From: Candidatus Woesearchaeota archaeon
GTDB lineage: Archaea > Nanobdellota > Nanobdellia > Woesearchaeales > GW2011-AR9
DNA length: 64,000 bases
Direction: 5' to 3'
Assembly (NCBI GenBank): GCA_018696595.1
Contig: JABHQW010000003.1
Span: forward strand, 62,001 to 126,000
In this document: positions 34,848 through 50,476 of the stretch, piece after piece
Layout: each line of letters opens with the position of its first letter
How positions within the stretch are numbered: position 1 is the first letter of the stretch
Notes under the pieces: model-generated
Databases searched by the model: none
The model's input: only the letters and a program-made list of their open reading frames with translations
Told to the model about the DNA's origin: nothing
Position numbers and translations under genes: made by a program

Positions 34848-35855
34848 TTATTGATTCAAAGTTTTATCAATTAACTTTTCTCCCCAAAAGATCTTATCAT
34901 AATGAAATCTAATAAACTCATCATTTATATCTGTTCTTTCATAAACTAAATCTTTATCATTATAATTGTTATTTGGATCACTATGTATTATTTTCTTAGT
35001 CACTGGATTTATCGCTATAGACCCGTAATCAAATTCAGCATGATGATATGGACAGAGAATTATTATATTCTCTTTTACGTCTGGACCATTGTACTCGCCA
35101 CCAAGAGGTTTCAAGTGATGCCCTTCTGCATAATATTTAGAGTTTTCCAACAATATTCTTTTTCCACAAACTTGACATTTCCAATTAAAATTAGATTTTA
35201 TTCCCCTTACAAGAGCTGTATCTCTAACAATCCTTGAAGTTATAACCTCAATTCTTCCAGGACTGGTGTAATCCGGATAGGGGGGTTCGTTCACAGTAGG
35301 AACTTGAGAGTTCTCATTTCTAAATTGTACAATGAAATTAAGGCTTTCTGAGAAATCATCAAAGAGATCATATAATACAGGAGGAACTTTTGCAAAATAT
35401 TTTTGAGATACTCGCAAATCTCCCCCAGTGGGATATTCAACATAGAACATGCCTTCTTTATTTTCATGTAATATTTCTCTAAGTGAAGAATTATATTCTC
35501 TGAAGAAAGATCCAATAGTTGGAGGGGAGATTAAATTATTAAATTGACCAAGATTAATTCTTTGATAAGGAGACATGTTTGTCCATCTTTCGGGCCTAGG
35601 TGGTTCATCAATGGTTTGAATTAATGGTGTCACAACCATAGAAACGCCAGCCCAAACATATCCCTCATCAGACTTTAATAAATGAATAATGATATCACCA
35701 ACTTGAACCTCTTTCATGATTTTCCATGCTTCTGAACCGCCCCTGTCTTTTACCGGACTCCACAAGCAACTCCCAAATTCCCACCCAGAACCACCGTGAG
35801 CTGGATTTGTAATTTCAAGGAATACAGATTGGCCTTCTTTTAATTTAGGTAACAT
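34848..35855 (-). CDS. EVE-like/HNH endonuclease, candidate type IV restriction enzyme
   Basis: 335 aa. The first ~150 residues (VFLEITNPAHGGSGWEFGSC, LWSP, VGDIIIHLLKSDEGYVWAGV) resemble EVE/PUA-like modified-base readers. The C-terminus is HNH: CQVCGKRILLENSK, then AEGHHLKPLGGEYNGPD and IIILCPYHHAEFD, with zinc Cys and catalytic His. EVE-HNH enzymes are known to cut DNA with modified cytosine. A sulfur-binding domain is not visible. It lies inside a DNA-modification island, so it must tolerate host phosphorothioate if it is active. Confidence 0.7.
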   Translation of the reverse strand: MLPKLKEGQSVFLEITNPAHGGSGWEFGSCLWSPVKDRGGSEAWKIMKEVQVGDIIIHLLKSDEGYVWAGVSMVVTPLIQTIDEPPRPERWTNMSPYQRINLGQFNNLISPPTIGSFFREYNSSLREILHENKEGMFYVEYPTGGDLRVSQKYFAKVPPVLYDLFDDFSESLNFIVQFRNENSQVPTVNEPPYPDYTSPGRIEVITSRIVRDTALVRGIKSNFNWKCQVCGKRILLENSKYYAEGHHLKPLGGEYNGPDVKENIIILCPYHHAEFDYGSIAINPVTKKIIHSDPNNNYNDKDLVYERTDINDEFIRFHYDKIFWGEKLIDKTLNQ

Positions 35856-36339: not shown

Positions 36340-36371
36340 GTTTTTATAAAAGTAACCAAAATAGAATAAAA
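36340..36371 (+). promoter_or_regulatory. Promoter of the cassette upstream of dnd
   Basis: TTTTTATAAAAG near 36341-36351 is a TATA box 20-28 nt before the ATG at 36371, giving an essentially leaderless mRNA. Confidence 0.55.
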
Positions 36372-37789
36372 TGTCATTAAATGTACTTGAAGATCTTAAA
36401 GAAGTTTACAAATTAATATATAAATTGCTAATTTTTCCTGAATCTGATTGGAAAACTAAGATTTATGCTTCTACAGCTATGGCTTATCTCATAAATCCTT
36501 ATGATGTTATTCCCGAAGCAGAAAAAGGAAGTGAAGGTTATATTGATGATTTATATCTTTGTTTGTTAGTTTTAAAAGATTTGTCATTGTATAGAAAGGA
36601 TCTTATTGAAATAGCCAATGATAATAGATTAGATATTCAAGAATTTGTTGAACAAAAATTGATTATTTGTAAAAACGAGTTATGCGAAAAAACTAAACTG
36701 ATTGAAAAAGTTTCTGGTTATGATTCTCTGGAAAGATTTGATATTAGAAATTCACAAGTAGATTCCAAAATATCATCACAACTTGAACAGAACTCAACAA
36801 TTCTAGGAACAATTGCATTCTTTTATGATGAACTTTTAAATGTTCAAAAAACCTATGAAGAAAGAAGAGGTATGAACAAAAGAGGACCCCCTATAAGAAA
36901 AGGTTTAGGAAGAAAGATGGATCTTCCTTATGCATACCACCACACATTCTTAGAATTAAAAGAATCTAATCTTTTTTTTGATCTTAATAGGGTCTGTTTA
37001 CAATTTAACAAAAGTGAAGAATTAAAGCTTAAGATTGATTCTAATAATTCAACAGAAGATTTATTTATGAATTACGAGGACAACTTAAAAAATTTTAATG
37101 AAGATGTAGAATATTATAAAATCATTAAATTTGCTCATCCATTATTTAAAACATTATGTAATATTTCTAATGACTCCGATTGTAGTTGGCAAATCAAACA
37201 TGAAATCAATTCAGCGTTGGCTTATTTTTCATTAGTTGATGATGTTATTGATGACACTATAGAGTCTGGTCTTGGTTATGTTGATGATATTTTTGTTGCA
37301 TCATTTGTTTTATTTGATATTGCTGAAAAAGATTTTCATCTTTTAAACAGAAATTTAGACTCTGGTTTAAGTATTACAACAATTAAAAACTTATTTGAAA
37401 GATCAAGTGAAATTATTGATAATGATTTGAGTCAAATAATTAATTTACTAGGTTTAAGGGGATTAATGTCATTTTTTGATTTAAATCAACCAAATAACAC
37501 TAATGTTTGTATTATTTCCAATCATGGTTCTAATTATAAAAAGATTTTGAATAGTTTAATTAAGCTATATTTTGTTCCAGAACTTAGTTTTGACAAGAAA
37601 TCAAACATATCAGAATACATTAAAGAAATTAATAAAAGTTTATCTGGAGATCAATTATTAAAATTAAATAAGTTTATTGAAATAGCAGAAAACAGTTGTT
37701 ATAATAAAAACATACAACAAGAATTTGAAAACAAAGAACATGAAGAGATCAGATTATTAATACTTAAACATAAAATATTATCAAGCTAA
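36371..37789 (+). CDS. Double DUF1232 (YkvA-like) protein of the phosphorothioation cassette
   Basis: 472 aa. Two DUF1232-like units: WKTKIYASTAMAYLINPYDVIPEA...YIDDLYLCLLVLKDLS (~27-75) and a divergent copy IKHEINSALAYFSLVDDVIDDTI...GYVDDIFVASFVLFDIA (~275-320). The C-terminal ~20 residues (EHEEIRLLILKHKIL) recur in the minus-strand protein at 48624. DUF1232 folds are found in membrane-near and defence proteins, with no settled function. It starts an operon; the next gene begins 1 nt after its stop. Confidence 0.7.
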   Translation: MSLNVLEDLKEVYKLIYKLLIFPESDWKTKIYASTAMAYLINPYDVIPEAEKGSEGYIDDLYLCLLVLKDLSLYRKDLIEIANDNRLDIQEFVEQKLIICKNELCEKTKLIEKVSGYDSLERFDIRNSQVDSKISSQLEQNSTILGTIAFFYDELLNVQKTYEERRGMNKRGPPIRKGLGRKMDLPYAYHHTFLELKESNLFFDLNRVCLQFNKSEELKLKIDSNNSTEDLFMNYEDNLKNFNEDVEYYKIIKFAHPLFKTLCNISNDSDCSWQIKHEINSALAYFSLVDDVIDDTIESGLGYVDDIFVASFVLFDIAEKDFHLLNRNLDSGLSITTIKNLFERSSEIIDNDLSQIINLLGLRGLMSFFDLNQPNNTNVCIISNHGSNYKKILNSLIKLYFVPELSFDKKSNISEYIKEINKSLSGDQLLKLNKFIEIAENSCYNKNIQQEFENKEHEEIRLLILKHKILSS

Positions 37790-37790
37790 A

Positions 37791-39917
37791 ATGGAAAACA
37801 AATCGTTTAAAGAAATAGATGAACAAATTAAAGACACTTACTATAATTCAGAAGACAATCCCATTAAAAATTTTATGATTCCTGTTCTAAAGTGTTCTAA
37901 AATATATCGCCGCGAAACATACAGTTTTAATGCAGCTATATTTTCTTTGATTAGTGATGCTTTAGTTGATGTGTTTGAAAATGATTGTAAAATCCAGTAT
38001 ATTGTTGGCATGGAAATTAACGAAAAACATGAATTAGCAATTGAAAAAGGACTAGAAGATGAAGTAGGTCTTATTGAAAAACATTTAATTAATGATTTTG
38101 GGGACATTGAAAAATTTGTTGAAAAATTAAATAGTAAATATGAAAAAGAAAAAATAGAGAATAGGTTAAGAATGCTTAGTCTGATGATCTCAAAAGGAAT
38201 TTTAGAGATTAAAGTAGGATTTAAATGTAAAAGGGGAAAACCATTAGACCCTCGTTGGGCAAAATTCCACCCCAAAGTTATGATTTTTACTGATTTTGAA
38301 GGAAACTCAATTGTTACAAATGGATCACCTAATGAGAGCGAAGGTGGTGGAGACCGTAATGAAGAAGCATTTGATGTATTCAAAAGTTGGGACATTGGAT
38401 CCAAAAAATGGTTTGATAGACATTGGGCAAAGTTTGATGAATTTTGGGATAATACTAAGGAAAACGTAAAGACTATTGAAGTAAGTAAATTAATTGAAAG
38501 TAATGTTCTTAGAAAATATAGAAGTAGATCCAAAACTAAAGGAGAAATGATCAATATTGAAAAAGATTTAAACAAGCTGTTGGAAATGGAAAAAAAGGTG
38601 GATCAAACTGAAGAAAATATCCCTAAAGAATCAGGAGAGATAGAATTACGACATTACCAAAATGAGATTATTGATAATTGGTTTAAAGAAGACTCTAAAG
38701 GAATTTATGCACTTTGTACAGGAGCAGGTAAAAGTATTACTGCTATTCGCACTATTAAAAGATTATTGAAAAATCATCCTAAAACCATTACAATTATTGT
38801 TGCACCATATATCCCCCTTTGTGAACAATGGATACAAGTTTTAAAAACTGAGAATATAACCCCATTAATGGCATATAAGTCAATGGAATTATGGTATAAA
38901 TCATTAAAACATAAATTACTTTCATTTCAAATGGGTGGAACTGATTCGATATTTATTATCACAACAAATAAAACATACTCTAGTGATGAATTTCAAAATT
39001 TATTGAATAATTATTGGAAAAATTGTTTTTTAATAATCGATGAGTGCCATCATTTTGCTAGTACAACATACAGATCAACATTAAATGAGAGAATACAATT
39101 TAGGCTAGGTCTTTCAGCAACCCCGGAAAATGAGATGGACAGAGAGGGAAACATGGTGTTATATCGTTTTTTTAAGAAAAATATACCTCCTGAATATTCT
39201 TTAAAAGATGCTATCATTGAAGGTTACTTAAACAGATATGATTATTATCCAATAATTAATGAACTTGATGATCAAGAAAATGAAAATTTTGAGGAAATAA
39301 CTTTAAGAATATTAGCTGCTAAAAAAGATGGTGACTTTAAAAAAGTTGAAACCATATCTAAAGAAAGAGATGTTCTAATAGATACTTCGAAAACAAAAAT
39401 CCCAAATCTTTCAAGACTATTAGATCAGATTGAAGATTTATCACATTCGTTAATTTATTGTTCTGGAACTAAACAATTAGAACAAGTTTCAAGACTATTA
39501 AAGGAAAAAGGAATAAATTTTGGAAAAATTACTTCTGATGAAACCGCAAAAGAAAGATATAATATGATCGATCAATTTAAAAAAGGATTTATTAAACTTC
39601 TTTTGAGCATAAGAATACTTGATGAAGGTATAGATATTCCAGCAATTAAAACTGCAATGATATTAAAAAGTTCAGCAAGATCTCGACAAGCAATTCAGAG
39701 AAGGGGAAGATGTTTAAGATTATTAAAAGATGAATTTGGAGAGATAATTGATAAAAATGCTAGAATTTACGACTTTGTCACTTTGCCAAGGTCAAAATTA
39801 GATGTGGTTAAAGAATCATATGGTCTTGAAATAAAACGAATAATGGAATTCGTAACTTTATCAAACAATTCAAAAGAAGCAGAAAAGATTATAAAAGATC
39901 ACTTCCCTTATGTTTAA
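37791..39917 (+). CDS. PLD-like nuclease domain fused to SF2 helicase
   Basis: 708 aa. N-terminal phospholipase-D-like domain: HPKVMIF at ~160 and TNGSPNESEGGG...NEEAFDVF, the H-x-K...N...E pattern, probably nuclease or DNA-binding. The helicase half begins near 285 (LRHYQNEIIDNWF): Walker A CTGAGKSITAI ~308, DECHHFAS ~417, LGLSATPENEMD, then the second RecA domain with SLIYCSGTKQLE, DEGIDIPAIKTAMIL and QRRGRCLRLL. PLD-helicase fusions occur in restriction and defence systems. Translation is likely coupled to the DUF1232 gene. Confidence 0.88.
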   Translation: MENKSFKEIDEQIKDTYYNSEDNPIKNFMIPVLKCSKIYRRETYSFNAAIFSLISDALVDVFENDCKIQYIVGMEINEKHELAIEKGLEDEVGLIEKHLINDFGDIEKFVEKLNSKYEKEKIENRLRMLSLMISKGILEIKVGFKCKRGKPLDPRWAKFHPKVMIFTDFEGNSIVTNGSPNESEGGGDRNEEAFDVFKSWDIGSKKWFDRHWAKFDEFWDNTKENVKTIEVSKLIESNVLRKYRSRSKTKGEMINIEKDLNKLLEMEKKVDQTEENIPKESGEIELRHYQNEIIDNWFKEDSKGIYALCTGAGKSITAIRTIKRLLKNHPKTITIIVAPYIPLCEQWIQVLKTENITPLMAYKSMELWYKSLKHKLLSFQMGGTDSIFIITTNKTYSSDEFQNLLNNYWKNCFLIIDECHHFASTTYRSTLNERIQFRLGLSATPENEMDREGNMVLYRFFKKNIPPEYSLKDAIIEGYLNRYDYYPIINELDDQENENFEEITLRILAAKKDGDFKKVETISKERDVLIDTSKTKIPNLSRLLDQIEDLSHSLIYCSGTKQLEQVSRLLKEKGINFGKITSDETAKERYNMIDQFKKGFIKLLLSIRILDEGIDIPAIKTAMILKSSARSRQAIQRRGRCLRLLKDEFGEIIDKNARIYDFVTLPRSKLDVVKESYGLEIKRIMEFVTLSNNSKEAEKIIKDHFPYV

Positions 39918-39922
39918 ATAAA

Positions 39923-40093
39923 ATGAAAGAAATTAAAAACATATTAGAGAATATGAAATGTCCTGAGGAGAATCAGATTTTACTTATTGAAACACTTAAG
40001 AGTTGTAAATATCATAGATCTGATAAGAATAATAAAGAAATAATCTTACAAATATATTCTACACTTAATAAATTGATGAAAAATGAAAATTAA
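39923..40093 (+). CDS. Small 56-aa protein in the cassette
   Basis: Starts 6 nt after the helicase stop and overlaps the start of the ATPase gene by 11 nt, so it fits a translationally coupled operon. Sequence begins MKEIKNILENMKCPEENQ and ends STLNKLMKNEN; helical with two Cys. No family recognised. Shorter than common length cut-offs, so easily missed. Confidence 0.55.
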   Translation: MKEIKNILENMKCPEENQILLIETLKSCKYHRSDKNNKEIILQIYSTLNKLMKNEN

Positions 40094-42101
40094 AGAAATG
40101 AAATTGAAGAATTTCAAAGCATATCGTAATGAAGAACTAAAATTCAGTACAGATAAGGAAAAAAATGTCACATTAATTTATGGTGTTAATGGAGCGGGTA
40201 AAACTTCTTTTTTTCAGGCATTGAATTGGGGTTTATATGGGTATGATGTGATTGGTACAAACAACACAATCTCCTCAATGAAAACAATTGCAGGAAAATA
40301 TTTATTGGATGAATTATCTGAAGGAGAAACTGAAGAAGTAAAAATTGAAATTCAATTTGAAAACGATGGATATGATTATACATTAACAAGGATTGCACAT
40401 TTTATTAAAAAAAATAATGAGCTTTCTTACTTAATGAAAAATGATTTCCTGAGTTTGTACTATGTCTCTGATATGGGTAAACCAAGTATGATTAAAAATG
40501 ACTCATTGGATCAAGAACAAAAAATATCAAGAATCATAAACAACGTTCTTCCTTTCGGTTCTAGAGAGTACTTTTTATTTGATGGTGAAAATTTAGCTAA
40601 TTACTCAGAAGCCAATAAACACCAATGTCTCGAAATTAAAAATGCAATTAGACAAGTATTAGGGTTAGATGACTTTGATATTGCTATTAAAAATATAAAA
40701 GCGGTTAATGATCAATTAAGAAAAGATTTCGAGAAAAAAGAATGTTCTGAAAAGATAAATGACACCAATAATGTGATTGGAGATTACCAGGAAAGACAAA
40801 CAAAAATTAGCAAAGAAGTAATTTCTCAGAGATATTTATTAAAAGAAAAGAATACTGAATTTACAAAAAATGAAGATTTATTGAAATCTTTTCATCAAGA
40901 AATAGAAAAAATAGAAAAAAGAAGTGAAATTGAAAAAGAAATTGAATCAATTAAAATTACACTTTCCTTAAATTTAAAAGAATTAAGGTCTGTTTTGACT
41001 CAAGGTTATATGTGTTATTCAGAATCAATCCAAACAGAATGTTTTAATTTGCTAACATCATGGAGAAAACAAAATAAATTTCCAACTAAATATTATAATC
41101 TTGATTTTGTAAAAAATATTATCCAAAATAAAAAATGTTTTTTTTGGGATTTTGAAGAAAATAGTGAAGAACATAAATTCTTTTTAAAAGAAGAAGAAAA
41201 ATTACAAAATTGGGGACATAATATTCAAAATGATCTAACTGATTTTTATGGTAAAGTTTCTTCATTAAAAATAGGATCAAAAAGTTTAATTAAAGATATA
41301 AGTGAACAACATAAAGTATATGTACAAACTGAAACAAAATTTAGAGAACATATTCTTGCTCACGAGGAAATTAACAAAGAAATAAAATCCAAAATAACCG
41401 ATAAAGAAATTCAAGAATGTAATAATAAAAGAGAAATCATTCAAAATGAGATTCTTAAAGTTAGTACAAACATTAAATCACTTACTGAACAATCTATACT
41501 TTTTGAAGAAGAGATTAGAAAAGCAAATTCCCTCTTAAACTCTATGAAAAGTAAAACTGTAGAGGGAAAGAAAATTCAAGATAAAAAGAAATTAATAACT
41601 GAATCAATTTATTGGTTAAAACAATTATATGAACACTATTCTCAAATTAAACGACAAGAAGTTGAGAAACACATGCAAGACTTATTTAGAAATATTCTTT
41701 GGAAAAAACAACACTACCAGGATGCTAAACTAACCTCAGATTATAAATTAACATTACCTGACAAATGGGGAGATGCCGGAGAAGATCTGGTTTCAAAAGG
41801 AGAAGGCCAAGTATTAATATTAAGTTTTGTGGCAGCATTAGCAAAGTCTACAAATGATGAAGCACCATTTATTATTGATACTCCTTTTGCAAGAATTTCA
41901 ATAGAACCTACAATTAATATTGCAAAATTCTTACCAGAGCAAGTTTCACAATTAGTTCTTTTTGTTACTGATAAAGAATTAACTACCGAATCTGAAAGAT
42001 TATTTACTGAAAAAACCCAATATGTTTGGACAATAAAGTTTAATGAGGAAAATTCAGAAACAAATATTATAAATGGCAAACAAGTCAAAACAGAATATTA
42101 A
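40083..42101 (+). CDS. DndD/RecF-like ABC ATPase (SMC-like) of the cassette
   Basis: 672 aa. Head 1: LKNFKAYRNEELKF and Walker A YGVNGAGKTSFFQALNWGLYG (~34-54). FLFDGENLANYSE (~160) resembles DndD. A coiled coil of ~300 residues follows. Head 2: SKGEGQVLILSFVAALAKS (signature-like) and Walker B APFIIDTPFARISIEP (~593-608). Same family as DndD at 45166, but clearly a separate protein with a different hinge. Probably an SMC-like DNA-handling ATPase that cooperates with the helicase. Confidence 0.85.
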   Translation: MKIKEMKLKNFKAYRNEELKFSTDKEKNVTLIYGVNGAGKTSFFQALNWGLYGYDVIGTNNTISSMKTIAGKYLLDELSEGETEEVKIEIQFENDGYDYTLTRIAHFIKKNNELSYLMKNDFLSLYYVSDMGKPSMIKNDSLDQEQKISRIINNVLPFGSREYFLFDGENLANYSEANKHQCLEIKNAIRQVLGLDDFDIAIKNIKAVNDQLRKDFEKKECSEKINDTNNVIGDYQERQTKISKEVISQRYLLKEKNTEFTKNEDLLKSFHQEIEKIEKRSEIEKEIESIKITLSLNLKELRSVLTQGYMCYSESIQTECFNLLTSWRKQNKFPTKYYNLDFVKNIIQNKKCFFWDFEENSEEHKFFLKEEEKLQNWGHNIQNDLTDFYGKVSSLKIGSKSLIKDISEQHKVYVQTETKFREHILAHEEINKEIKSKITDKEIQECNNKREIIQNEILKVSTNIKSLTEQSILFEEEIRKANSLLNSMKSKTVEGKKIQDKKKLITESIYWLKQLYEHYSQIKRQEVEKHMQDLFRNILWKKQHYQDAKLTSDYKLTLPDKWGDAGEDLVSKGEGQVLILSFVAALAKSTNDEAPFIIDTPFARISIEPTINIAKFLPEQVSQLVLFVTDKELTTESERLFTEKTQYVWTIKFNEENSETNIINGKQVKTEY

Positions 42102-42108
42102 ATAGAAG

Positions 42109-42549
42109 ATGAATCAATCAAGAAACCCACCCATCCACATTAATGAAAAGTTTAATATGAGATATAGTCTTTACTCTAATCCACAACACAAAAGAAACAC
42201 TGATGAAAAGGAGTTATTATTTTTCTCTAGGATGGTTGATTTATTTATGTTAGCTACAATTCATGGCTTTAAAGAAGGATTAAGAATTCCCTTTGAAAAA
42301 CCAAGTGAAAAAACTGATATTTTCAAATGGAGCAATTTTAAAGACGAAGATTTGACAATTATTAAATCAATAGGATTATTAGAGCTTATTAGAATTGGAA
42401 ATGAGGATCCGAACATTATTAATGATAAATCAAGAATGGTTGAAATAATTCAAGAATATGCTAATGGGGGATTTCAAGATTTAATGGAAATATTAGAAGA
42501 GAACCCTGACTTTGAAGGAAATTTCATTTCATTAATACTAACAAAATAA
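42109..42549 (+). CDS. Dnd system-associated protein 4-like
   Basis: 146 aa. The segment LFMLATIHGFKEGLRIPFE, then FKWSNF, then IIQEYANGGFQDLMEILEE fits my recollection of the small Dnd-associated family 4 found beside phosphorothioation genes. It starts 7 nt after the ATPase stop. The probable role is to link the cassette to DNA phosphorothioate; this is inferred from genomic context. Confidence 0.6.
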   Translation: MNQSRNPPIHINEKFNMRYSLYSNPQHKRNTDEKELLFFSRMVDLFMLATIHGFKEGLRIPFEKPSEKTDIFKWSNFKDEDLTIIKSIGLLELIRIGNEDPNIINDKSRMVEIIQEYANGGFQDLMEILEENPDFEGNFISLILTK

Positions 42550-42576
42550 TTTAGTAACTCAAATAAACCACTAATT

Positions 42577-42592
42577 GGATTACGTTTAATCC
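42577..42592 (+). promoter_or_regulatory. Palindrome GGATTA-CGTT-TAATCC upstream of dndB
   Basis: Perfect 6-bp arms around CGTT, about 47 nt before the dndB TATA box. A good shape for a dimeric regulator of the dnd operon. DndB itself is a known repressor of dnd genes in bacteria, so it is a candidate binder (inference). Confidence 0.45.
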
Positions 42593-42638
42593 GTTCAAAA
42601 GGAAGTCTATTTTATTCACTTGGAAGTTAAACTGAAAG

Positions 42639-42670
42639 TTTATATATCATTTAATTCTTAGAACTTTTTA
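42639..42670 (+). promoter_or_regulatory. dnd operon promoter
   Basis: TATA-like TTTATATAT at 42639-42647, 23-31 nt before the dndB ATG at 42670, so initiation would fall at or next to the start codon (leaderless). Confidence 0.6.
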
Positions 42671-43779
42671 TGGTGATAAAAAAAGAGGTTAGTTCAAATG
42701 CTTTCTCATTTACTGCATTAAGAGGCATTCAGTCTGGAAGAGAATATTATGTTGCAATGTGTCCATTAAGATTAATTCCTAGAATATTCTTATTTAACGA
42801 AATGGAAATCCCCCCCCATATGAGGGCACAAAGAACTCTTAATAAAGCAAGAGTTCCTGAAATGGCTTCATATATGATTAAAAATAATGATTATATTTTT
42901 TCATCTATTACTGCATCTATAGATGGAGAGATTCTATTTGAACCGATTGAGGATACTGGTCATAAATCTAAAATGGGAACTCTGAGCGTTCCTATGAGTG
43001 CTAGATTTTTAATTAATGATGGGCAGCATAGAAGAGCAGCAATAGAAAAAGCTTTAGCAGAGAAGCCAGAATTAGGTTCTGAAACAATCTCTGTAGTGTT
43101 CTTCCTTGATGCTGGATTGAAACGTAGCCAACAAATGTTTGCAGATCTTAATAAAAATGCGGTAAAACCTACAACTTCATTAAATATTTTATATAATCAT
43201 AGAGATGAGTTTTCAAGATCCATTATTTCACAATTAAATAATATACCTATTTTTGGAAATCAGTTAACTGAATTAGAAAAAACATCTATTTCAAATAGAG
43301 CCAAAAAGGTTTTCACTCTAAATAGTATTTATCATTCAACAAAATCATTTTTAGGTAAAAAAGAAAAAACCCCAGTTATATCTAATGATGAAAAGAAATT
43401 GGTTTCTGAGTTTTGGAATGAAGTTCATAATAATATTTCTGAATGGCAAGATGTTGTTAATGATAAGATCACTCCTTATGGATTGAGACAAGATTATGTT
43501 CATGTTTCCGGTGTTGTTCTTCATGCTATAGGTAGAATGGGTCATAAACTAATAAAAGATTATCCCAATAATTGGAAAATAAAACTAAAAAATCTTCAAC
43601 AAATTGATTGGAAAAAATCAAATCCCATTTGGGAAGGAAGAGCCATGCAAAATGGAAGATTAAGTAAAGTAAATACCAATTTGATTTTAACAAGTAATTA
43701 TCTTAAACAGCAAATGGAAGTTCCATTAAGTAAAGCAGAGATTGAAATTGAAAAAATAATAACAGGCGGATCAAAATAG
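42670..43779 (+). CDS. dndB: DNA phosphorothioation regulator DndB (DGQHR protein)
   Basis: 369 aa. The family motif is LINDGQHRRAAIEKAL near residue 115, followed by FFLDAGLKRSQQMFADLNKNAVKPT. DndB proteins bind DNA and repress or tune dnd expression and the frequency of modified sites. It is first in the operon dndB-C-D-E-A, has its own promoter, and is separated by 120 nt from the upstream cassette. The length matches bacterial DndB. Confidence 0.93.
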   Translation: MVIKKEVSSNAFSFTALRGIQSGREYYVAMCPLRLIPRIFLFNEMEIPPHMRAQRTLNKARVPEMASYMIKNNDYIFSSITASIDGEILFEPIEDTGHKSKMGTLSVPMSARFLINDGQHRRAAIEKALAEKPELGSETISVVFFLDAGLKRSQQMFADLNKNAVKPTTSLNILYNHRDEFSRSIISQLNNIPIFGNQLTELEKTSISNRAKKVFTLNSIYHSTKSFLGKKEKTPVISNDEKKLVSEFWNEVHNNISEWQDVVNDKITPYGLRQDYVHVSGVVLHAIGRMGHKLIKDYPNNWKIKLKNLQQIDWKKSNPIWEGRAMQNGRLSKVNTNLILTSNYLKQQMEVPLSKAEIEIEKIITGGSK

Positions 43780-45179
43780 TTAAAGAATCTATATTTAAAA
43801 GTAGAAAATTAAAAGACATTCACAAAGAGATACAAACGGTTTATTTAAGTGATGATAGACCTTGGGTTATTGGATTTAGTGGAGGAAAAGATTCTACAGT
43901 TATTTTACAACTAATTTGGTATGCATTATCCGAATTACCAAAAAATAAATTAAAAAAAACTATACATGTTATTTCTTCAAATACTTTAGTAGAATCACCT
44001 ATTTTAATTAATTATGTTGGAAAGATTCATAAGTTGATCAATAGCAAAGCAAAAGAGCAAGGGATTCCAATTACTGCCACACACATTTTTCCCAAAGTAG
44101 AAGACACTTTTTGGGTTAATTTAATTGGAAAAGGTTATCCTGCACCAACAAGAATGTTTAGATGGTGTACAGAAAGGTTAAAAATTAAACCCGCTGATGA
44201 GTTTATTTTTAATACAGTAAGTAAGTATGGTGAAGCAATCGTTGTTTTAGGAGTTCGTAAAGAGGAAAGTACTTCAAGAGAACAAAGTATGAATACTTAT
44301 AAAATTCAAGGTTCTTTGTTATCAAAGCATTCAAAATTCTCACAGGCGTATGTTTATACCCCCATTGAAGAATTTACTGTGGATGATGTTTGGTCATATT
44401 TATTACAAAAAAAGTCTCCTTGGGGAGCTAATAATAGGGAACTATTAACAATGTATTCTGATAAGAATAGTGGAGAATGTCCATTAGTAGTAGATAATAC
44501 TTCTCCTAGTTGTGGTGGGTCTAGATTTGGTTGTTGGACTTGTACATTGGTTAAAAAAGATAAATCAATGGATAATCTAATCTCTAGTGGTGAAAAATGG
44601 ATGCAACCTTTGTCTGATTTTAGAGTTAAACTATATGAAACAACAGATCCTGAAAAAAAGTATAAATTTAGAGATTTTAAGAGTAGAAGAGGTTTTGTAA
44701 GGTTAAAAAATGATGGAAGCGGAAAAATTGCTAGAGGCCCATACAAATTCTCTTATTGTAAGGAATTGTTATTAGAATTATTAAAAATTCAAATGAAATT
44801 TAATGAACAAGGGATTGATTTTCAGGTAATTAATGAAAATGAGATTCATGAAATTAGGAAAATTTGGCGTAATGAAAGAAATGATTGGGAAGACTCAATT
44901 CCAAAAATGTATGAATCAGTATTAGGGAAAAGCCTTAATTGGGTTCAAGATGATTTCGGGGAATTTTCGGTTTCTGAAAGAGAATTATTGAAAAGAATCT
45001 GTGAAAAAAATAATGTCTCAACAGATCTAATATTAGAATTATTAGATGTAGAAAAACAATTCCAAGGAATGACCCGTAGAGCAAATATTTATGCCAAACT
45101 AGGATCGACATTAAAAAAAGAATGGAGGTCTGAAGAAGAATTTTTAGATTCTTTAAAAAAGAAAAATGAAAATAAATGA
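43776..45179 (+). CDS. dndC: DNA sulfur modification protein DndC (start codon non-canonical)
   Basis: PAPS-reductase-like ATP pyrophosphatase that inserts sulfur into the DNA backbone. PP-loop DDRPWVIGFSGGKDSTVILQ lies at ~29-48 counted from 43776. Cys clusters for the Fe-S site are seen at RMFRWCTERLK, GECPLV, SPSCGGSRFGCWTCT. The frame is open from 43752 but has no ATG, GTG or TTG before TTG 44034, which would delete the PP-loop. Candidate starts are ATA 43776 (overlapping the dndB TAG), ATA 43791 or ATT 43818. An assembly error is also possible. The 5' end is uncertain, the identity is not. Confidence 0.9.
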   Translation: MVKESIFKSRKLKDIHKEIQTVYLSDDRPWVIGFSGGKDSTVILQLIWYALSELPKNKLKKTIHVISSNTLVESPILINYVGKIHKLINSKAKEQGIPITATHIFPKVEDTFWVNLIGKGYPAPTRMFRWCTERLKIKPADEFIFNTVSKYGEAIVVLGVRKEESTSREQSMNTYKIQGSLLSKHSKFSQAYVYTPIEEFTVDDVWSYLLQKKSPWGANNRELLTMYSDKNSGECPLVVDNTSPSCGGSRFGCWTCTLVKKDKSMDNLISSGEKWMQPLSDFRVKLYETTDPEKKYKFRDFKSRRGFVRLKNDGSGKIARGPYKFSYCKELLLELLKIQMKFNEQGIDFQVINENEIHEIRKIWRNERNDWEDSIPKMYESVLGKSLNWVQDDFGEFSVSERELLKRICEKNNVSTDLILELLDVEKQFQGMTRRANIYAKLGSTLKKEWRSEEEFLDSLKKKNENK

Positions 45180-47130
45180 AGTTAAATTAAATAATTATGG
45201 CCTGTATCATGGCACTCAAACTTTTGATCTTAGAACTACTGGTTCTAAAAATATAATCCTAATTGGTGGAGAGAATGGGCATGGTAAAACAACTTTATTT
45301 GATGCCATAAAACTCGCACTATATGGAAAGAAGTCCGCAGATTTTAGTTTAACTAATCAAGAATATCAAGAATTATTATTCAGTAAAATTCATGACTCTG
45401 CTAGTGTTGAATCGGCAGATCATGCTGGAATAGAAGTGGAATTTGAACATTCAGTTCTAGGAGAAATTAATAAATATCGAATTAAGCGATTTTGGAATGT
45501 ACGTAACAATAAAATTATTGAAGATTTTGAAGTTTCCCAGAATGGAAAAACTCTGGATGATTTCTCTTTTGAACAATGGGAAGATTTTATTAATGACTTA
45601 ATTCCTCAAGGATTGGCAAAATTATTCTTTTTTGATGGAGAAAAAATACAAAATTTAGCAGAAGATAAAAATAATCAATATTTATCTGATGCATTTAAAA
45701 GTTTATTAGGTATAGATTTAATTGAAAAATTAAAAGCTGACCTTAGAATATATTTAATTCGGAATACAAACGGGAAAGAATCTTCTGACATTGAAAAAGA
45801 AGTAACTAAATTAAATAAAAATAAAATCATTTTATCAAAACAAATTGATGGTATAGACTCAAATATTGAGAAAAATGATTTATTTTTGAAAAAAAACATC
45901 AAACAAATAAAATATCTTGAGAATGCACTCTCTGTAAAAGGGGGGAATTTTGCTCGTGATCGTGATTCTTTGAAACAAAAATCAAACGAATTGGATGTTA
46001 AAATTAATTTTTGTGAAGAAAAAATACGTTCAATGTGTAATGAACAATTACCTTTTATTTTTTCTCCAAAATTAAATTTATCTCTTTTAACTAGATTAAA
46101 AGTTGAAAGAGAGTCAAAACACAACCAAATTGCTTTTGATAAGGTGATCTCTGCCATAAAAGAAATAAAAAATGAATTAGTTAGCAGTAAGAAAAATGAT
46201 AAATCAGTTTTGAATATTTTGGATAACAAAATTAAAAGCTTCAATATTGAAGGAGACCAAAATGAAGTTCACAAAATATCAGATAGTCACTTTTTTAGAC
46301 TTACAAATTTAATTGGAACAGATATTGATGAAACCAAAAAAGGATTTATTAATTTAGTTAAGGACCACGAACAATTAACTTATAAAAAAACAAAATTAGT
46401 AAAACAATTAGGAATTGTCCCTGATGAATTGGATCTAAAGCCTTACTTTGAAAAATTAGGTAAGTGTAATAAAAAATTAGGAGAATTTAATTCATTTAAA
46501 AAACAGTTGTTAGAAAAGAAAAAAACTTTTGATTTCAAAATAAATCAGTTAGAAAGAGACATTGATAAAAAAATTGATATGATCAGGACAATTAATAAGA
46601 AAGATGAAATTATCCAATCAATAAGCAAGGTAGAATCTGTTTTAACTGAATATCATGGTAAATTGCATGATTTTAAAATGAAAGAATTTTCTAAATATTT
46701 TCTTATGTGTTTTGATAGTATATCTAAGAAGAAGAACATTTTTTCAAAAGTAGAATTAGATCCTAAAACATTTAATGTTTATTTATGGAAATATAGTAAT
46801 AATAAGAGGATCTCAAAGAATCAACTTTCTACAGGAGAAAAACAATTATATGCTATTGCTGTTTTATGGACATTAATAAAAATATCTCAAAGACCTCTTC
46901 CTTTTATTATTGATACTCCCTTAGCCAGACTTGATGTTAAAAATAGGAATAATATTGTCAATAATTTTTTTCCCAATGCAAGTCATCAAATCATTATCCT
47001 CTCAACAGATACTGAAATTGATCAGAATTATCATGGTATTCTGAAAAATAAAATTTCAAGAGAGATGGTTTTAGATTTTAATGATGAGAAAACAAGAATA
47101 ATTCCTGGTTATTTTTGGGGTGAAAAATGA
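45166..47130 (+). CDS. dndD: DNA sulfur modification protein DndD
   Basis: 654 aa SMC/RecF-like ATPase. MKINEVKLNNYGLYHGTQTF opens head 1 with Walker A GGENGHGKTTLFDAIKLALYG (~34-54) and FFFDGEKIQNLAED (~150). The coiled coil runs ~210-530. Head 2 has NQLSTGEKQLYAIAVLW and Walker B PFIIDTPLARLD. It supplies ATPase/DNA-nicking functions in phosphorothioation. It overlaps dndC by 14 nt. Confidence 0.94.
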   Translation: MKINEVKLNNYGLYHGTQTFDLRTTGSKNIILIGGENGHGKTTLFDAIKLALYGKKSADFSLTNQEYQELLFSKIHDSASVESADHAGIEVEFEHSVLGEINKYRIKRFWNVRNNKIIEDFEVSQNGKTLDDFSFEQWEDFINDLIPQGLAKLFFFDGEKIQNLAEDKNNQYLSDAFKSLLGIDLIEKLKADLRIYLIRNTNGKESSDIEKEVTKLNKNKIILSKQIDGIDSNIEKNDLFLKKNIKQIKYLENALSVKGGNFARDRDSLKQKSNELDVKINFCEEKIRSMCNEQLPFIFSPKLNLSLLTRLKVERESKHNQIAFDKVISAIKEIKNELVSSKKNDKSVLNILDNKIKSFNIEGDQNEVHKISDSHFFRLTNLIGTDIDETKKGFINLVKDHEQLTYKKTKLVKQLGIVPDELDLKPYFEKLGKCNKKLGEFNSFKKQLLEKKKTFDFKINQLERDIDKKIDMIRTINKKDEIIQSISKVESVLTEYHGKLHDFKMKEFSKYFLMCFDSISKKKNIFSKVELDPKTFNVYLWKYSNNKRISKNQLSTGEKQLYAIAVLWTLIKISQRPLPFIIDTPLARLDVKNRNNIVNNFFPNASHQIIILSTDTEIDQNYHGILKNKISREMVLDFNDEKTRIIPGYFWGEK

Positions 47131-47492
47131 ATGACTTTACTAGAATGAGAATATCTAATGATGCTACTTTCAAATTACGCTCTTTAAAACAAAGAACAGG
47201 ATTAACTCCAAATTTATTGTGTAGGGTTGGTTTATGTTTCTCATTGGAAAATGACCTACAAAATGATCTGGTTCCCTTAGATGAAGATGGGCAAGAGTTT
47301 AATCGTCAAACTTTATTGGGTGAAAATGACTTATTTTTTATTTCACTCATTAAGGAAAAATGTGCTTTAATGGGATTAGATTCTGAAAAAGATTTTATGC
47401 AACAATTTAAGTATCATTTGAATAATGGGATTTTAGTCTTACATGGAAGGGTTAAAAGTTTAACTGATTTAACAAACCTTATTGAAAAATGA
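47127..47492 (+). CDS. dndE: DNA sulfur modification protein DndE
   Basis: 121 aa. Opens MNDFTRMRISNDATFKLRSL, then KQRTGLTPNLLCRVGLCFSL and NRQTLLGENDLFFISLIKE, the DndE pattern. Its bacterial relatives form oligomers that bind nicked DNA. It starts inside the dndD stop (ATGA overlap) and ends inside the dndA start, so all three are coupled. Confidence 0.92.
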   Translation: MNDFTRMRISNDATFKLRSLKQRTGLTPNLLCRVGLCFSLENDLQNDLVPLDEDGQEFNRQTLLGENDLFFISLIKEKCALMGLDSEKDFMQQFKYHLNNGILVLHGRVKSLTDLTNLIEK

Positions 47493-48607
47493 AAATAATC
47501 TATTGTGATAATAACTCCACTACTCAAGTAGATAAGAAAGTACTAAATGAAATGTTGCCTTACTTTTGTGAGAAATTTGGTAATGCTTCTAGTATTGACC
47601 ATGTTTATGGAAATGAATTATTACCTGAGATCAAGAAAGCAAGAGAGTCTATTGCTAAAGTAATTAATTGTGATTTTGATGAAATTATATTCACTAGTGG
47701 TGCTACTGAATCTAATAATTTGGCAATTATGGGCACAGTTGAGCAGTTAAAAGAAAAAGGAAATCATATTGTTACTTCTTCAATTGAACATAAATCAATT
47801 TTGAATGTTTGTCAAGAATTAGAAAAAAGAGGTTTTCAAGTTACTTATGTTTCTCCTGACAAGAGCGGAGTGTTGAAATCTGAAGATATTAAGTCTGCAA
47901 TTACTGATCAAACTATATTGATTTCGATTATGGGTGCCAATAATGAAATTGGCACTATTCAACCTATCAAAGAAATTGGCATTATTGCTAAAGAAAAAGG
48001 AATTGTATTTCATACTGATTCTGCACAAGCTTTTGGAAAAATTTCTTTAGATGTAAATAATATTGATTTAATGTCAATATCATCGCATAAAGTGTATGGT
48101 CCTAAAGGAATTGGTGCTTTATTTATTAGAAGAGGAGTAAAAATAAAACCTATCATTTTTGGTGGTGGCCAAGAAGGAAAGATACGACCAGGCACCTATA
48201 ATGTTCCAAGCATAGTTGGTTTTGGAAAAGCAAGTGAATTAGTTTCATTAAAGAATCAAGAATTAATTAAAAATTTAACTATGAATTTATATGATCGTTT
48301 GTCTGAACATGTCCAACTAAATGGAGATCTAAATAATCGTATTCCTGGAAATCTAAATTTGTTTGTTGAGGATGTTGATTCAAAAGCTTTAATTAATGAA
48401 GTAAAGACAAGTCTTGCAATTTCTGCAGGTTCCGCTTGTAATAGTGATGAAGTAACTCCTTCTCATGTTATTCTAGCTTTAGGATATGATGATAATAGAG
48501 CATATAGTAGTATTAGAATTGGATTAGGAAGATTTACAACGGAAGAAGAAATAAATAAAGTGGTAAATGTTTTAATTCCAGCAATTAAGAAACTGAGAAA
48601 TTTATAA
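47489..48607 (+). CDS. dndA: Cysteine desulfurase DndA (IscS/NifS family)
   Basis: 372 aa PLP enzyme that takes sulfur from cysteine for DndC. PLP-lysine lies in ISSHKVYGPKGIGALF (~200), the PLP-contact ATESNNLA near 75, and the catalytic Cys loop SAGSACNSDEVTP (~313-325). Family opener IIYCDNNSTTQVDKKVL is present. Last gene of the operon, as in archaeal dndCDEA clusters rather than the bacterial order with divergent dndA. Confidence 0.93.
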   Translation: MKIIYCDNNSTTQVDKKVLNEMLPYFCEKFGNASSIDHVYGNELLPEIKKARESIAKVINCDFDEIIFTSGATESNNLAIMGTVEQLKEKGNHIVTSSIEHKSILNVCQELEKRGFQVTYVSPDKSGVLKSEDIKSAITDQTILISIMGANNEIGTIQPIKEIGIIAKEKGIVFHTDSAQAFGKISLDVNNIDLMSISSHKVYGPKGIGALFIRRGVKIKPIIFGGGQEGKIRPGTYNVPSIVGFGKASELVSLKNQELIKNLTMNLYDRLSEHVQLNGDLNNRIPGNLNLFVEDVDSKALINEVKTSLAISAGSACNSDEVTPSHVILALGYDDNRAYSSIRIGLGRFTTEEEINKVVNVLIPAIKKLRNL

Positions 48608-48623
48608 ATATAAATTATAAAAT

Positions 48624-48998
48624 TTAATAATCATTCCCCAAAATCTTGTGTTTAAGCAATAATAATCTGATCTCATGATTCTCCTGATTCTCAAGTTTTC
48701 TTTTAATATTCTCACTTAAGTTTTTCCCGCTTTTATCAATTACTTCTTTAATAATACTAAACACTTTCCGTGATCTATCAATTAAGGGGAATATTGATTC
48801 TACTTCTTCATGTGTCATCCTTCCTAGACGGCATATGGAATACTCTCCATTACCTTGTTTAAATTCTTTAATTATTTGTAACTTTGGATTCCCTTTGTTA
48901 TAAGAATATATTACTATTCTAAATTTAGTTTTTCCTATGTTCACAGATTCTGAGAATAATTCAAGATCTAAATTAACATCATATCCAAATTTAGTCAT
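48624..48998 (-). CDS. Small PC4-like protein with tail shared with the DUF1232 protein
   Basis: 124 aa. Start taken at the ATG (48998), which overlaps the TGA of the upstream nuclease gene (ATGA), rather than a longer reading. The N-terminal 75 residues (TKFRIVIYSYNKGNPKLQII, then YSICRLGRMTHEEVESI) resemble a PC4-type single-strand DNA-binding domain; this is weak. The last 20 residues (ENHEIRLLLLKHKILGNDY) repeat the C-terminus of the protein at 36371. Converges with dndA, 16 nt apart. Confidence 0.55.
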   Translation of the reverse strand: MTKFGYDVNLDLELFSESVNIGKTKFRIVIYSYNKGNPKLQIIKEFKQGNGEYSICRLGRMTHEEVESIFPLIDRSRKVFSIIKEVIDKSGKNLSENIKRKLENQENHEIRLLLLKHKILGNDY

Positions 48999-50413
48999 TT
49001 CACCAACTCCCTCAACGCTTCTACAATCCAGATCATACCTTCGGTATCTAACTCGCAATACTTAAGCAGATCATCACGGACATCTTCACCGCCGTTGAGC
49101 ATCTTTACAAATAACAAAGAAGCAGTATCGCCATCAGAGATTTCTAAATGAGAATAATCTTTACCAACAATCGCAGGTAAGACTTTCTTTAAAGAAGCTG
49201 AACCTTTCTGTTTAAGATTGTAATAATGAAATTGTCTGAAAGGAACAATTAAATCAACCACTCTACTAACTACGCCCTCAACCCAATCTTTATATTCAGG
49301 AAATACTAAACCTAACTCTCGTAACCGACCAATCTCAAAAGATTGATTATATGTTACAATAGTTCCAGAAGAACCTAAAACTTCTTTCAAAGCTTTAAGA
49401 AATTCTAAGCGACAATCTAATTTAGAACCTAAAAACTCATAATGCTTATCATTAACATGTAAAGACCATTGAAACGGAATTTGTTGGTATGGTTTAGTTC
49501 CATCTAAAATAGGAACAGCTGACCGAAAAGTTTCGAAATCTAAATAGTATAGTTCACCTTTCAAAGTATTAAGAAACTTTTCAATCTCTTCTTTATTTAC
49601 ATGAACTTTTCCATTAATCTCACATTGATGTTGAATACCTTGTTTATCAGATAATTTAAACTCAGAAGGAATGTCTTTCAATTCTAAAATTCCATCTTCA
49701 TATAACTGAAAACTTTTCTTCCCACCACGAGATAAATCAAAAACACTTGAAGAAGGTAAAAATCCCCAACATCCATCTTCTAAAGGACAATCGTAAGGGT
49801 CAGCACAATCTGACGAAATCTTTACAGTAGGACAAACATTAGATCTCATTACTTTAAGCATTTCATCAATCTTTTCTTTAATTCCTGTAACTTCACTAAC
49901 TAAAGAAGTAATATCTTCTTTAACAAAGAACTTTACAGGGTCTATCTCTCCATCTTTAACAAACTTATTATTAACATGCATTAAAAAACAATTCTTAATT
50001 TTCAAACCACATAAAGAATAAACATATTTCTGAAATGCAACATCTTGAATATTAATTTTTTTAACAGAAGCGCCAGATTTAACTTCAATAATGTCCCAAC
50101 CATCTTCATTAGGAACAAGAACGTCTGCCCGAGAATAAACTTCTCCATCTGAATAGGCTGCTTCGAATAAAGGTTTGCCTTCAGACAATAGTTTTCTTGA
50201 ATTAATCAAACTTCCTTTAAAATCAGCTTCAGGGATATCAATGCCTTCTGGAAACATTTTCTTTGCTAACTGACCAACGATATGACCTTGATCAAACTTA
50301 TGTTTAGTAGCTAAATCATGTTCAGGAATTTTATCTTTCTCATGCAAATCTATCCAGAAGTACTTTAAACATTGTAGTCCGACTAAGTATCTTGATTTTG
50401 TTAATAATGCCAT
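48995..50413 (-). CDS. DUF2779 / RecB-like nuclease
   Basis: 472 aa. N-terminal half is a RecB/Cas4-like nuclease: MALLTKSRYLVGLQCLKYFW, then YSRADVLVPNEDGWDIIEVKSGAS (D...E-x-K). A Cys-rich segment (CADPYDCPLEDGCWGF) may bind Fe-S. The C-terminal half is DUF2779 with DnaQ-like patterns (LYYLDFETFRSAVP, TYNQSFEIGRLREL). Probably a DNA nuclease. It is coupled with the downstream PC4-like gene. Confidence 0.85.
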   Translation of the reverse strand: MALLTKSRYLVGLQCLKYFWIDLHEKDKIPEHDLATKHKFDQGHIVGQLAKKMFPEGIDIPEADFKGSLINSRKLLSEGKPLFEAAYSDGEVYSRADVLVPNEDGWDIIEVKSGASVKKINIQDVAFQKYVYSLCGLKIKNCFLMHVNNKFVKDGEIDPVKFFVKEDITSLVSEVTGIKEKIDEMLKVMRSNVCPTVKISSDCADPYDCPLEDGCWGFLPSSSVFDLSRGGKKSFQLYEDGILELKDIPSEFKLSDKQGIQHQCEINGKVHVNKEEIEKFLNTLKGELYYLDFETFRSAVPILDGTKPYQQIPFQWSLHVNDKHYEFLGSKLDCRLEFLKALKEVLGSSGTIVTYNQSFEIGRLRELGLVFPEYKDWVEGVVSRVVDLIVPFRQFHYYNLKQKGSASLKKVLPAIVGKDYSHLEISDGDTASLLFVKMLNGGEDVRDDLLKYCELDTEGMIWIVEALRELVK

Positions 50414-50476
50414 TTTATACTAAAATATAAGCTACATTAAAAATTTAACTAAAACATCGCCCCAAAACACCACTAA

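What the first reader, a model, noticed from the sequence alone, without database searches (positions are those of the whole stretch)
36371..48607. Archaeal phosphorothioation locus with a cassette that replaces DndFGH
dndB-C-D-E-A is complete, but no DndF, DndG or DndH homologue is seen. Immediately upstream is a tightly packed set: double DUF1232 protein, PLD-SF2 helicase, 56-aa protein, DndD-like ATPase and Dnd-associated small protein (1-7 nt gaps or overlaps). Known from the literature: archaeal DndCDEA can pair with PbeABCD, which halts virus replication without cutting DNA. The gene set here may be that system or a variant with a nuclease (PLD) arm. The linkage is seen; the function is inference.
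Basis: partly seen in the sequence, partly recalled or inferred. Interest (0 to 1): 0.88.

Follow-up and report, generated by a model that had tools for sequence, protein, structure and literature searches.

The report
Archaeal sulfur-DNA defence with extra subunit
A tiny uncultivated archaeon carries a known type of antiviral system that marks its own DNA with sulfur and blocks unmarked DNA (Dnd + PbeABCD); what is new is an extra, unstudied gene (DUF1232) fixed in front of the effector gene here and in several relatives.

Summary
A dndB-C-D-E-A set follows a tightly packed five-gene cassette in a Nanoarchaeota/Nanobdellota genome. The cassette is not a new replacement for DndFGH. Its last four genes are PbeA, PbeB, PbeC and PbeD in the published order, the archaeal phosphorothioate (PT) defence described in 2019 and reinterpreted in 2024 as a PLD-helicase plus ABC ATPase/DndE-like module. 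The PLD "arm" is simply PbeA, so it is not a variant.

The possibly new part is the first gene, a tandem DUF1232 protein. DUF1232 is rare in this phylum: over the family cut-off in 8 of 371 genomes, against 7 with full-length PbeA. Five of those seven have DUF1232 directly in front of pbeA. It recurs in a methanogen. It accompanies pbe whether the neighbouring modifier is Dnd or a cytosine methylase, and it sits on more than one PbeA lineage (AU p=0.017). Pbe-linked DUF1232 proteins share a C-terminal helix motif absent from orphan ones. I infer an adaptor or regulator of PbeA. No function has been tested. I found no paper linking DUF1232 with PT systems. Verdict: a divergent member of a known system with a conserved fifth component.

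The parts
36371..37789 (+). DUF1232 (YkvA-family) tandem-domain protein, 472 aa; proposed fifth Pbe component, translationally coupled to pbeA (1-nt gap)
   Evidence: Pfam PF06803 4.4e-9, two stretches; homologues directly upstream of pbeA in G127, G123, G079, G353, G476 and Methanoculleus
37791..39917 (+). pbeA: PLD (HKD) nuclease fused to SF2 helicase, 708 aa
   Evidence: PADLOC PbeA 1.4e-167; TIGR04095 domain, below its cut-off; H160-x-K162 and D168 invariant in nine homologues, helicase Walker A and DECH intact
39923..40093 (+). pbeB: 56-aa small protein in the PbeB position
   Evidence: position between pbeA and pbeC; aligns with 89 small proteins in the same slot; no profile hit of its own
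40083..42101 (+). pbeC: SMC/DndD-like ABC ATPase, 672 aa, lacking the usual CxC hook
   Evidence: PADLOC PbeC 7.4e-76 (254 bits) against DndD 153 bits; tree; CFFW where relatives have C-x-C-G
42109..42549 (+). pbeD: DndE-like small protein (dnd_assoc_4)
   Evidence: TIGR04062 1.1e-9, below its curated cut-off; weak PADLOC PbeD hit 0.006; gene order
42670..43779 (+). dndB: DGQHR-domain putative regulator
   Evidence: PF14072 4.8e-131; PADLOC DndB 3e-155
43776..45179 (+). dndC: PP-loop sulfurtransferase; apparent ATA start overlapping the dndB stop; C-terminal Sp-DndD segment
   Evidence: PADLOC DndC 1e-167, PF20306 5e-11 at residues 351-392 of the fragment, start-codon analysis
45166..47130 (+). 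dndD: ABC ATPase
   Evidence: TIGR03185 2.4e-148; DndD clade
47127..47492 (+). dndE
   Evidence: PADLOC DndE 5.9e-39; PF08870
47489..48607 (+). dndA: cysteine desulfurase; PLP lysine motif SSHK and cysteine motif GSACN present
   Evidence: PADLOC DndA 2.1e-148; motifs
48624..48998 (-). Convergent small protein ending in the same C-terminal tail as the DUF1232 protein; possible accessory part (uncertain). Longer ORF to 49058; ATG at 48998 gives a 4-nt overlap with the upstream DUF2779 gene
   Evidence: 16/28 identical C-terminal residues; genome-wide E=1.4e-4; tail absent from its own paralogue at G000:C5:97389-97619

Best explanation
This is a divergent PT-based DndBCDEA-PbeABCD defence system in a DPANN archaeon, extended by a DUF1232 protein. 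Dnd proteins put sulfur into the host DNA backbone as a self mark, with DndB as likely regulator. PbeC and PbeD (ABC ATPase plus DndE-like DNA binder) scan DNA, with PbeB as a small linker. On unmarked invading DNA they engage PbeA, a dimerising PLD nuclease driven by an SF2 translocase, so that viral replication stops. The DUF1232 protein is made with PbeA and most likely binds a Pbe protein, PbeA first of all, through its C-terminal helix; there it would act as adaptor, inhibitor or sensor controlling PbeA. Shown here: gene identities, order, conserved motifs, recurrent linkage and the shared tail. Taken from published work on another archaeon: PT dependence and the replication block. Inferred: that the same happens here, all contacts, and the role of DUF1232.
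For: Profiles and gene order match PbeABCD. The PLD and helicase motifs are intact and conserved in nine PbeAs. Published work shows DndCDEA-PbeABCD of Haloterrigena jeotgali blocks SNJ1 replication and that all four pbe genes matter (PMC6459918). DUF1232 is over the Pfam cut-off in 8 of 371 genomes of the phylum, full-length PbeA is in 7, and 5 genomes have both (Fisher p=2e-8); in all five the DUF1232 gene abuts pbeA. A sixth nanoarchaeal locus (L051 = G476) and Methanoculleus L052 repeat it, and Methanobrevibacter L098 has DUF1232 just after the pbeD-position gene. The DUF1232-bearing PbeAs do not form one clade (AU p=0.017), and the neighbouring modifier is Dnd in four loci and a C5 methylase in four, so DUF1232 tracks the Pbe side rather than one ancestor or one modifier. 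A tail motif E-x2-L-x3-R-x-R-x-L-L ends most Pbe-linked DUF1232 proteins and is absent from the 140-aa orphans.
Against: There is no functional data for this organism or for any DUF1232-Pbe protein. DUF1232 is missing from 3 of 9 nanoarchaeal pbe loci and from most bacterial ones, so it is not needed for Pbe function in general. The tail regex was derived from the proteins it describes; the L025 tail matches only loosely, and in L027 only the second of two DUF1232 genes has it. PbeC here lacks the CxC hook, and dndC lacks a normal start codon, so the system could be partly decayed. The cited experiments reported no cleavage of viral DNA (PMC6459918), whereas PMC10853773 argues for cleavage. 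AlphaFold models of the DUF1232 proteins were weak (mean pLDDT 49 and 58).
Confidence: 0.72

Rival explanations
1. Ordinary PbeABCD-Dnd system; the DUF1232 gene is a passenger or separate defence gene that merely sits beside it in a defence island.
For: Most pbe loci worldwide lack DUF1232; all four published pbe genes suffice for defence in Haloterrigena without it (PMC6459918); defence genes cluster generally.
Against: Recurrent immediate adjacency, often with overlap or a 1-4 nt gap, in at least seven loci on several PbeA lineages and with different modifiers; rarity of DUF1232 in the phylum outside pbe loci; Pbe-specific tail.
Confidence: 0.22
2. The DUF1232 protein is a membrane or cell-death effector triggered by the Pbe machinery (abortive infection) rather than a regulator.
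For: PMC10853773 proposes suicide as one mode of Pbe action; a position at the head of a defence operon can hold an effector.
Against: No transmembrane segment in gene 1 (best 19-residue hydropathy 1.46); all-helical prediction with no known toxin fold in PDB or viral libraries (weak model); PbeA already supplies a nuclease.
Confidence: 0.12
3. The locus is decaying and non-functional: dndC start lost, PbeC hook lost, PbeA and PbeC on very long branches.
For: ATA at the aligned dndC start; CFFW in place of CxC; end branches of about 2 changes per column.
Against: All ten reading frames are intact with catalytic motifs kept; three other PbeC proteins in the sample of 25 also lack the hook motif; a single ATA could be an assembly error.
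Confidence: 0.12

Closest known systems
DndCDEA-PbeABCD of Haloterrigena jeotgali A29 (PMC6459918)
   Same: Same four pbe genes in the same order with the same domains (PLD + ResIII + helicase; about 60 aa; AAA ATPase; about 150 aa), next to dndC-D-E-A
   Different: Window has dndB, an additional DUF1232 gene before pbeA, no CxC in PbeC, and PbeA and PbeC only about 18-33% identical to the relatives compared here; host is a DPANN archaeon
CxC ABC ATPase-DndE anchored systems (PMC10853773)
   Same: HKD-SF2 helicase, small protein, ABC ATPase and clade-2 DndE-like protein; found with Dnd or with methylases
   Different: Hook motif absent in this PbeC; DUF1232 partner not mentioned in that paper's main text
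SauUSI, PLD-SF2 type IV restriction enzyme (PDB 7CLG, PMC7913695)
   Same: PbeA profile aligns over PLD and helicase (7clg E=1.2e-36); gives a model for translocation-coupled cutting by dimers
   Different: SauUSI has its own SRA recognition domain and cuts modified DNA; PbeA lacks it and depends on PbeB, PbeC and PbeD
DndFGH restriction module
   Same: Also pairs with Dnd modification
   Different: No DndF, G or H homologue among the cassette genes and none found in the genome

Membership tests
PbeABCD PT-dependent defence system | PbeA: PLD + ResIII + helicase C in one chain | tested here: met
PbeABCD PT-dependent defence system | Order pbeA-small protein-ATPase-about 150 aa protein, tightly packed | tested here: met
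PbeABCD PT-dependent defence system | PbeD homologue in fourth place | tested here: met
   TIGR04062 E=1.1e-9 (38.6 bits, below the curated cut-off 74); divergent
PbeABCD PT-dependent defence system | PbeB homologue between A and C | tested here: inconclusive
   Right position and length; no significant profile hit
PbeABCD PT-dependent defence system | Adjacent dndC, D, E, A | tested here: met
PbeABCD PT-dependent defence system | PT-dependent block of virus DNA replication | not testable with these tools
   Needs a host and virus
CxC ABC ATPase clade (PbeC) | CxC Zn-hook at the coiled-coil apex | tested here: not met
   CFFW at the aligned place; the motif search finds none
CxC ABC ATPase clade (PbeC) | Groups with pbeA-linked ATPases and not DndD | tested here: met
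   98/92 separation; window with L081, L082, L086 at 94/95
DndABCDE PT modification | All five genes intact | tested here: inconclusive
   All present with motifs; dndC start codon is ATA
DndFGH restriction | DndF, DndG or DndH homologue | tested here: not met
   None among the cassette genes; none in the genome, without a positive control
DUF1232 (PF06803) | Match above the Pfam gathering score | tested here: met
   36.4 bits against 23, two stretches

The most novel reading that the evidence does not exclude
The place in front of pbeA is an exchangeable sensor/regulator slot of Pbe systems. In archaea it is filled repeatedly by DUF1232 proteins, which dock by a C-terminal helix; elsewhere it is filled by a sigma-like HTH protein or a radical-SAM-linked protein. 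Here the same docking helix has been grafted onto a second, convergently encoded small protein, which would make that neighbour part of the system.
Probability: 0.25. Interest if true: 0.68.

Novelty: new variant of a known kind. Interest (0 to 1): 0.47.

Why it matters
How Pbe stops a virus, and what keeps its nuclease-helicase quiet, is unsettled: one group reports no DNA cleavage, another argues for it. A conserved partner made together with PbeA, with a candidate docking helix, gives a direct handle on that question. It would also give a first functional context for a DUF1232 protein, and it adds a multigene PT defence to small-genome DPANN archaea, in which RM and CRISPR-Cas are reported to be underrepresented (PMC12988326).

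Tried and rejected
DUF1232 homologues on plasmids: none. Single-sequence PbeA scan of genome contigs: no hit; replaced by an alignment of more typical PbeAs (A3).

DUF1232 in viral contigs: none confirmed. Literature on DUF1232 with PT or defence: nothing relevant. PDB by sequence for gene 1: only chance-level hits. AlphaFold plus Foldseek: window model poor (mean pLDDT 49); the single-module model is good only for residues of about 30-160, and fold search gave no match under E=0.001.

'DUF1232 is inherited with one PbeA lineage' was tested and rejected (AU p=0.017), with long branches as a caveat. 'PbeB is a disordered protein unrelated to Dnd' is questioned: the PbeB family aligns weakly with the DndC C-terminus (hhalign P=0.001, probability only 19%), while Pfam Sp-DndD and the PADLOC PbeB model hit the DndC tail. 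This is a lead only.

Full report
What is there. The window is contig C6 positions 62001-126000 of a 1.19-Mb, 97% complete genome. The host is therefore a DPANN archaeon of the Nanoarchaeota/Nanobdellota. Archaeal ribosomal and RNA-polymerase genes open the window.

Identity. PADLOC, Pfam and NCBIfam scans name the genes PbeA (1e-167), a 56-aa gene in the PbeB place, PbeC (7e-76), PbeD (TIGR04062, 1e-9), DndB (3e-155), DndC (1e-167), DndD (NCBIfam 2.4e-148), DndE (6e-39) and DndA (2e-148). This is the order and domain content of DndCDEA-PbeABCD (PMC6459918). A 2024 reappraisal reads it as an HKD nuclease-helicase, a small protein, an ABC ATPase and a DndE-like protein (PMC10853773). The 'PLD arm' that looked like a variant is standard PbeA. 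PbeA keeps H160-x-K162 and D168, Walker A and DECH; these are invariant in nine homologues apart from conservative Walker A changes. The best solved relative that also covers the PLD part is SauUSI (7clg; PMC7913695), a dimeric PLD-SF2 enzyme that translocates and cuts. That makes nuclease action plausible, although PMC6459918 reports no viral DNA cleavage.

Oddities of this copy. PbeC lacks the CxC hook (CFFW) but belongs to the pbe-linked clade and not to DndD (98/92). PbeA and PbeC sit on long branches. The aligned start codon of dndC is ATA at 43776. Decay cannot be excluded, but no frame is broken.

Is it a replacement for DndFGH? None of the cassette genes matches DndF, G or H, and the genome shows none (without positive control). 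However, pbe cassettes occur beside C5 methylases with no dnd nearby, in G123, G079 and G353, and PMC10853773 finds Pbe and DndFGH together in some genomes. 'Replaces DndFGH' is therefore too strong.

The DUF1232 gene. Homologues of gene 1 were sought in 371 genomes of the phylum, as was PbeA. In G127, G123, G079 and G353 the DUF1232 gene directly precedes pbeA on the same strand. G476/L051 and Methanoculleus L052 repeat this, and Methanobrevibacter L098 carries it just after the pbeD-position gene. Nanoarchaeal loci without it are G125, G333 and G506. With the Pfam model, DUF1232 passes the cut-off in only 8 of 371 genomes. PbeA is full length in 7 and both are present in 5 (Fisher p=2e-8). 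In G079 the two DUF1232 modules are two adjacent genes, whereas in the window they are fused. The neighbouring modifier is Dnd in the window, G127, G476 and Methanoculleus, and a C5 methylase in G123, G079, G353 and Methanobrevibacter. The DUF1232-bearing PbeAs are not one clade (5 changes; AU p=0.017; long branches are a caveat). Together this argues for a functional tie to the Pbe side.

The tail. Pbe-linked DUF1232 proteins end in a short amphipathic helix, E-x2-L-x3-R-x-R-x-L-L. A regex made from them finds one other protein among 3,209 ORFs of at least 80 aa in the loci examined. The 140-aa orphan DUF1232 proteins lack it. The window's gene 1 shares 16 of 28 C-terminal residues with the convergent small protein at 48624-48998 (genome-wide E=1.4e-4). 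The paralogue of that small protein elsewhere in the genome ends before this tail. A docking peptide is the simplest reading; local DNA duplication is the alternative (76% identity over 58 nt).

Mechanism. I propose PT self-marking by Dnd, DNA surveillance by PbeC-PbeD, a PLD-translocase effector in PbeA, and a DUF1232 adaptor or regulator bound through its tail. Identity, order, linkage and motifs are shown here. PT dependence is published for another archaeon. Contacts and the DUF1232 role are inference. DUF1232 is dispensable in other Pbe systems, so it should tune rather than drive the response.

Novelty. The system is known. The DUF1232 component is not mentioned in the main text of the two key papers or in a literature search; supplements could not be read. 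I file it as a new variant of a known kind.

Noticed in passing
L038 4912-7992, L105 5752-8997 and 18 other loci; L060, L063, L067, L076, L131 and 14 others: The slot directly upstream of pbeA is filled in many other loci by one of two unrelated families: a long sigma-70-region-4/HTH-like protein (20 loci) or an about 230-aa protein, often fused to a radical-SAM-like part (19 loci; their PbeAs form one clade).
   Followed up: partly
window 39923-40093 and the C-terminal end of dndC (before 45179): PbeB-type small proteins resemble the C-terminal segment of DndC: Pfam Sp-DndD hits the DndC tail at 5e-11, while the profile-profile match is weak. PbeB may be a free version of the part of DndC that docks on the ATPase.
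   Followed up: partly
window 43776: dndC appears to start with ATA, overlapping the dndB stop codon; rare start codon, lesion or assembly error.
   Followed up: partly
window 34848-35855 (-): HNH endonuclease with an unassigned N-terminal domain directly upstream of the cassette; could be a modification-dependent nuclease.
   Followed up: no
window 48995-52189 (-): DUF2779 nuclease-like gene and a RecQ-type helicase in a convergent block; a DUF2779-like gene also lies upstream of the C5 methylase-DUF1232-pbe locus in G353 (L028 2208-3692).
   Followed up: no
L025 4341-5513 and L026 18266-19270 (-): A RecB/Cas4-like gene abuts or overlaps the DUF1232 gene upstream in G127 and G123.
   Followed up: no
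L131, L132: pbeA-pbeC pairs lie on IMG/VR contigs, so a virus or provirus may carry the cassette.
   Followed up: no
window 31546-34377: UvrD/REP-like helicase with an inserted segment and zinc ribbon at the left edge of the low-GC island.
   Followed up: no
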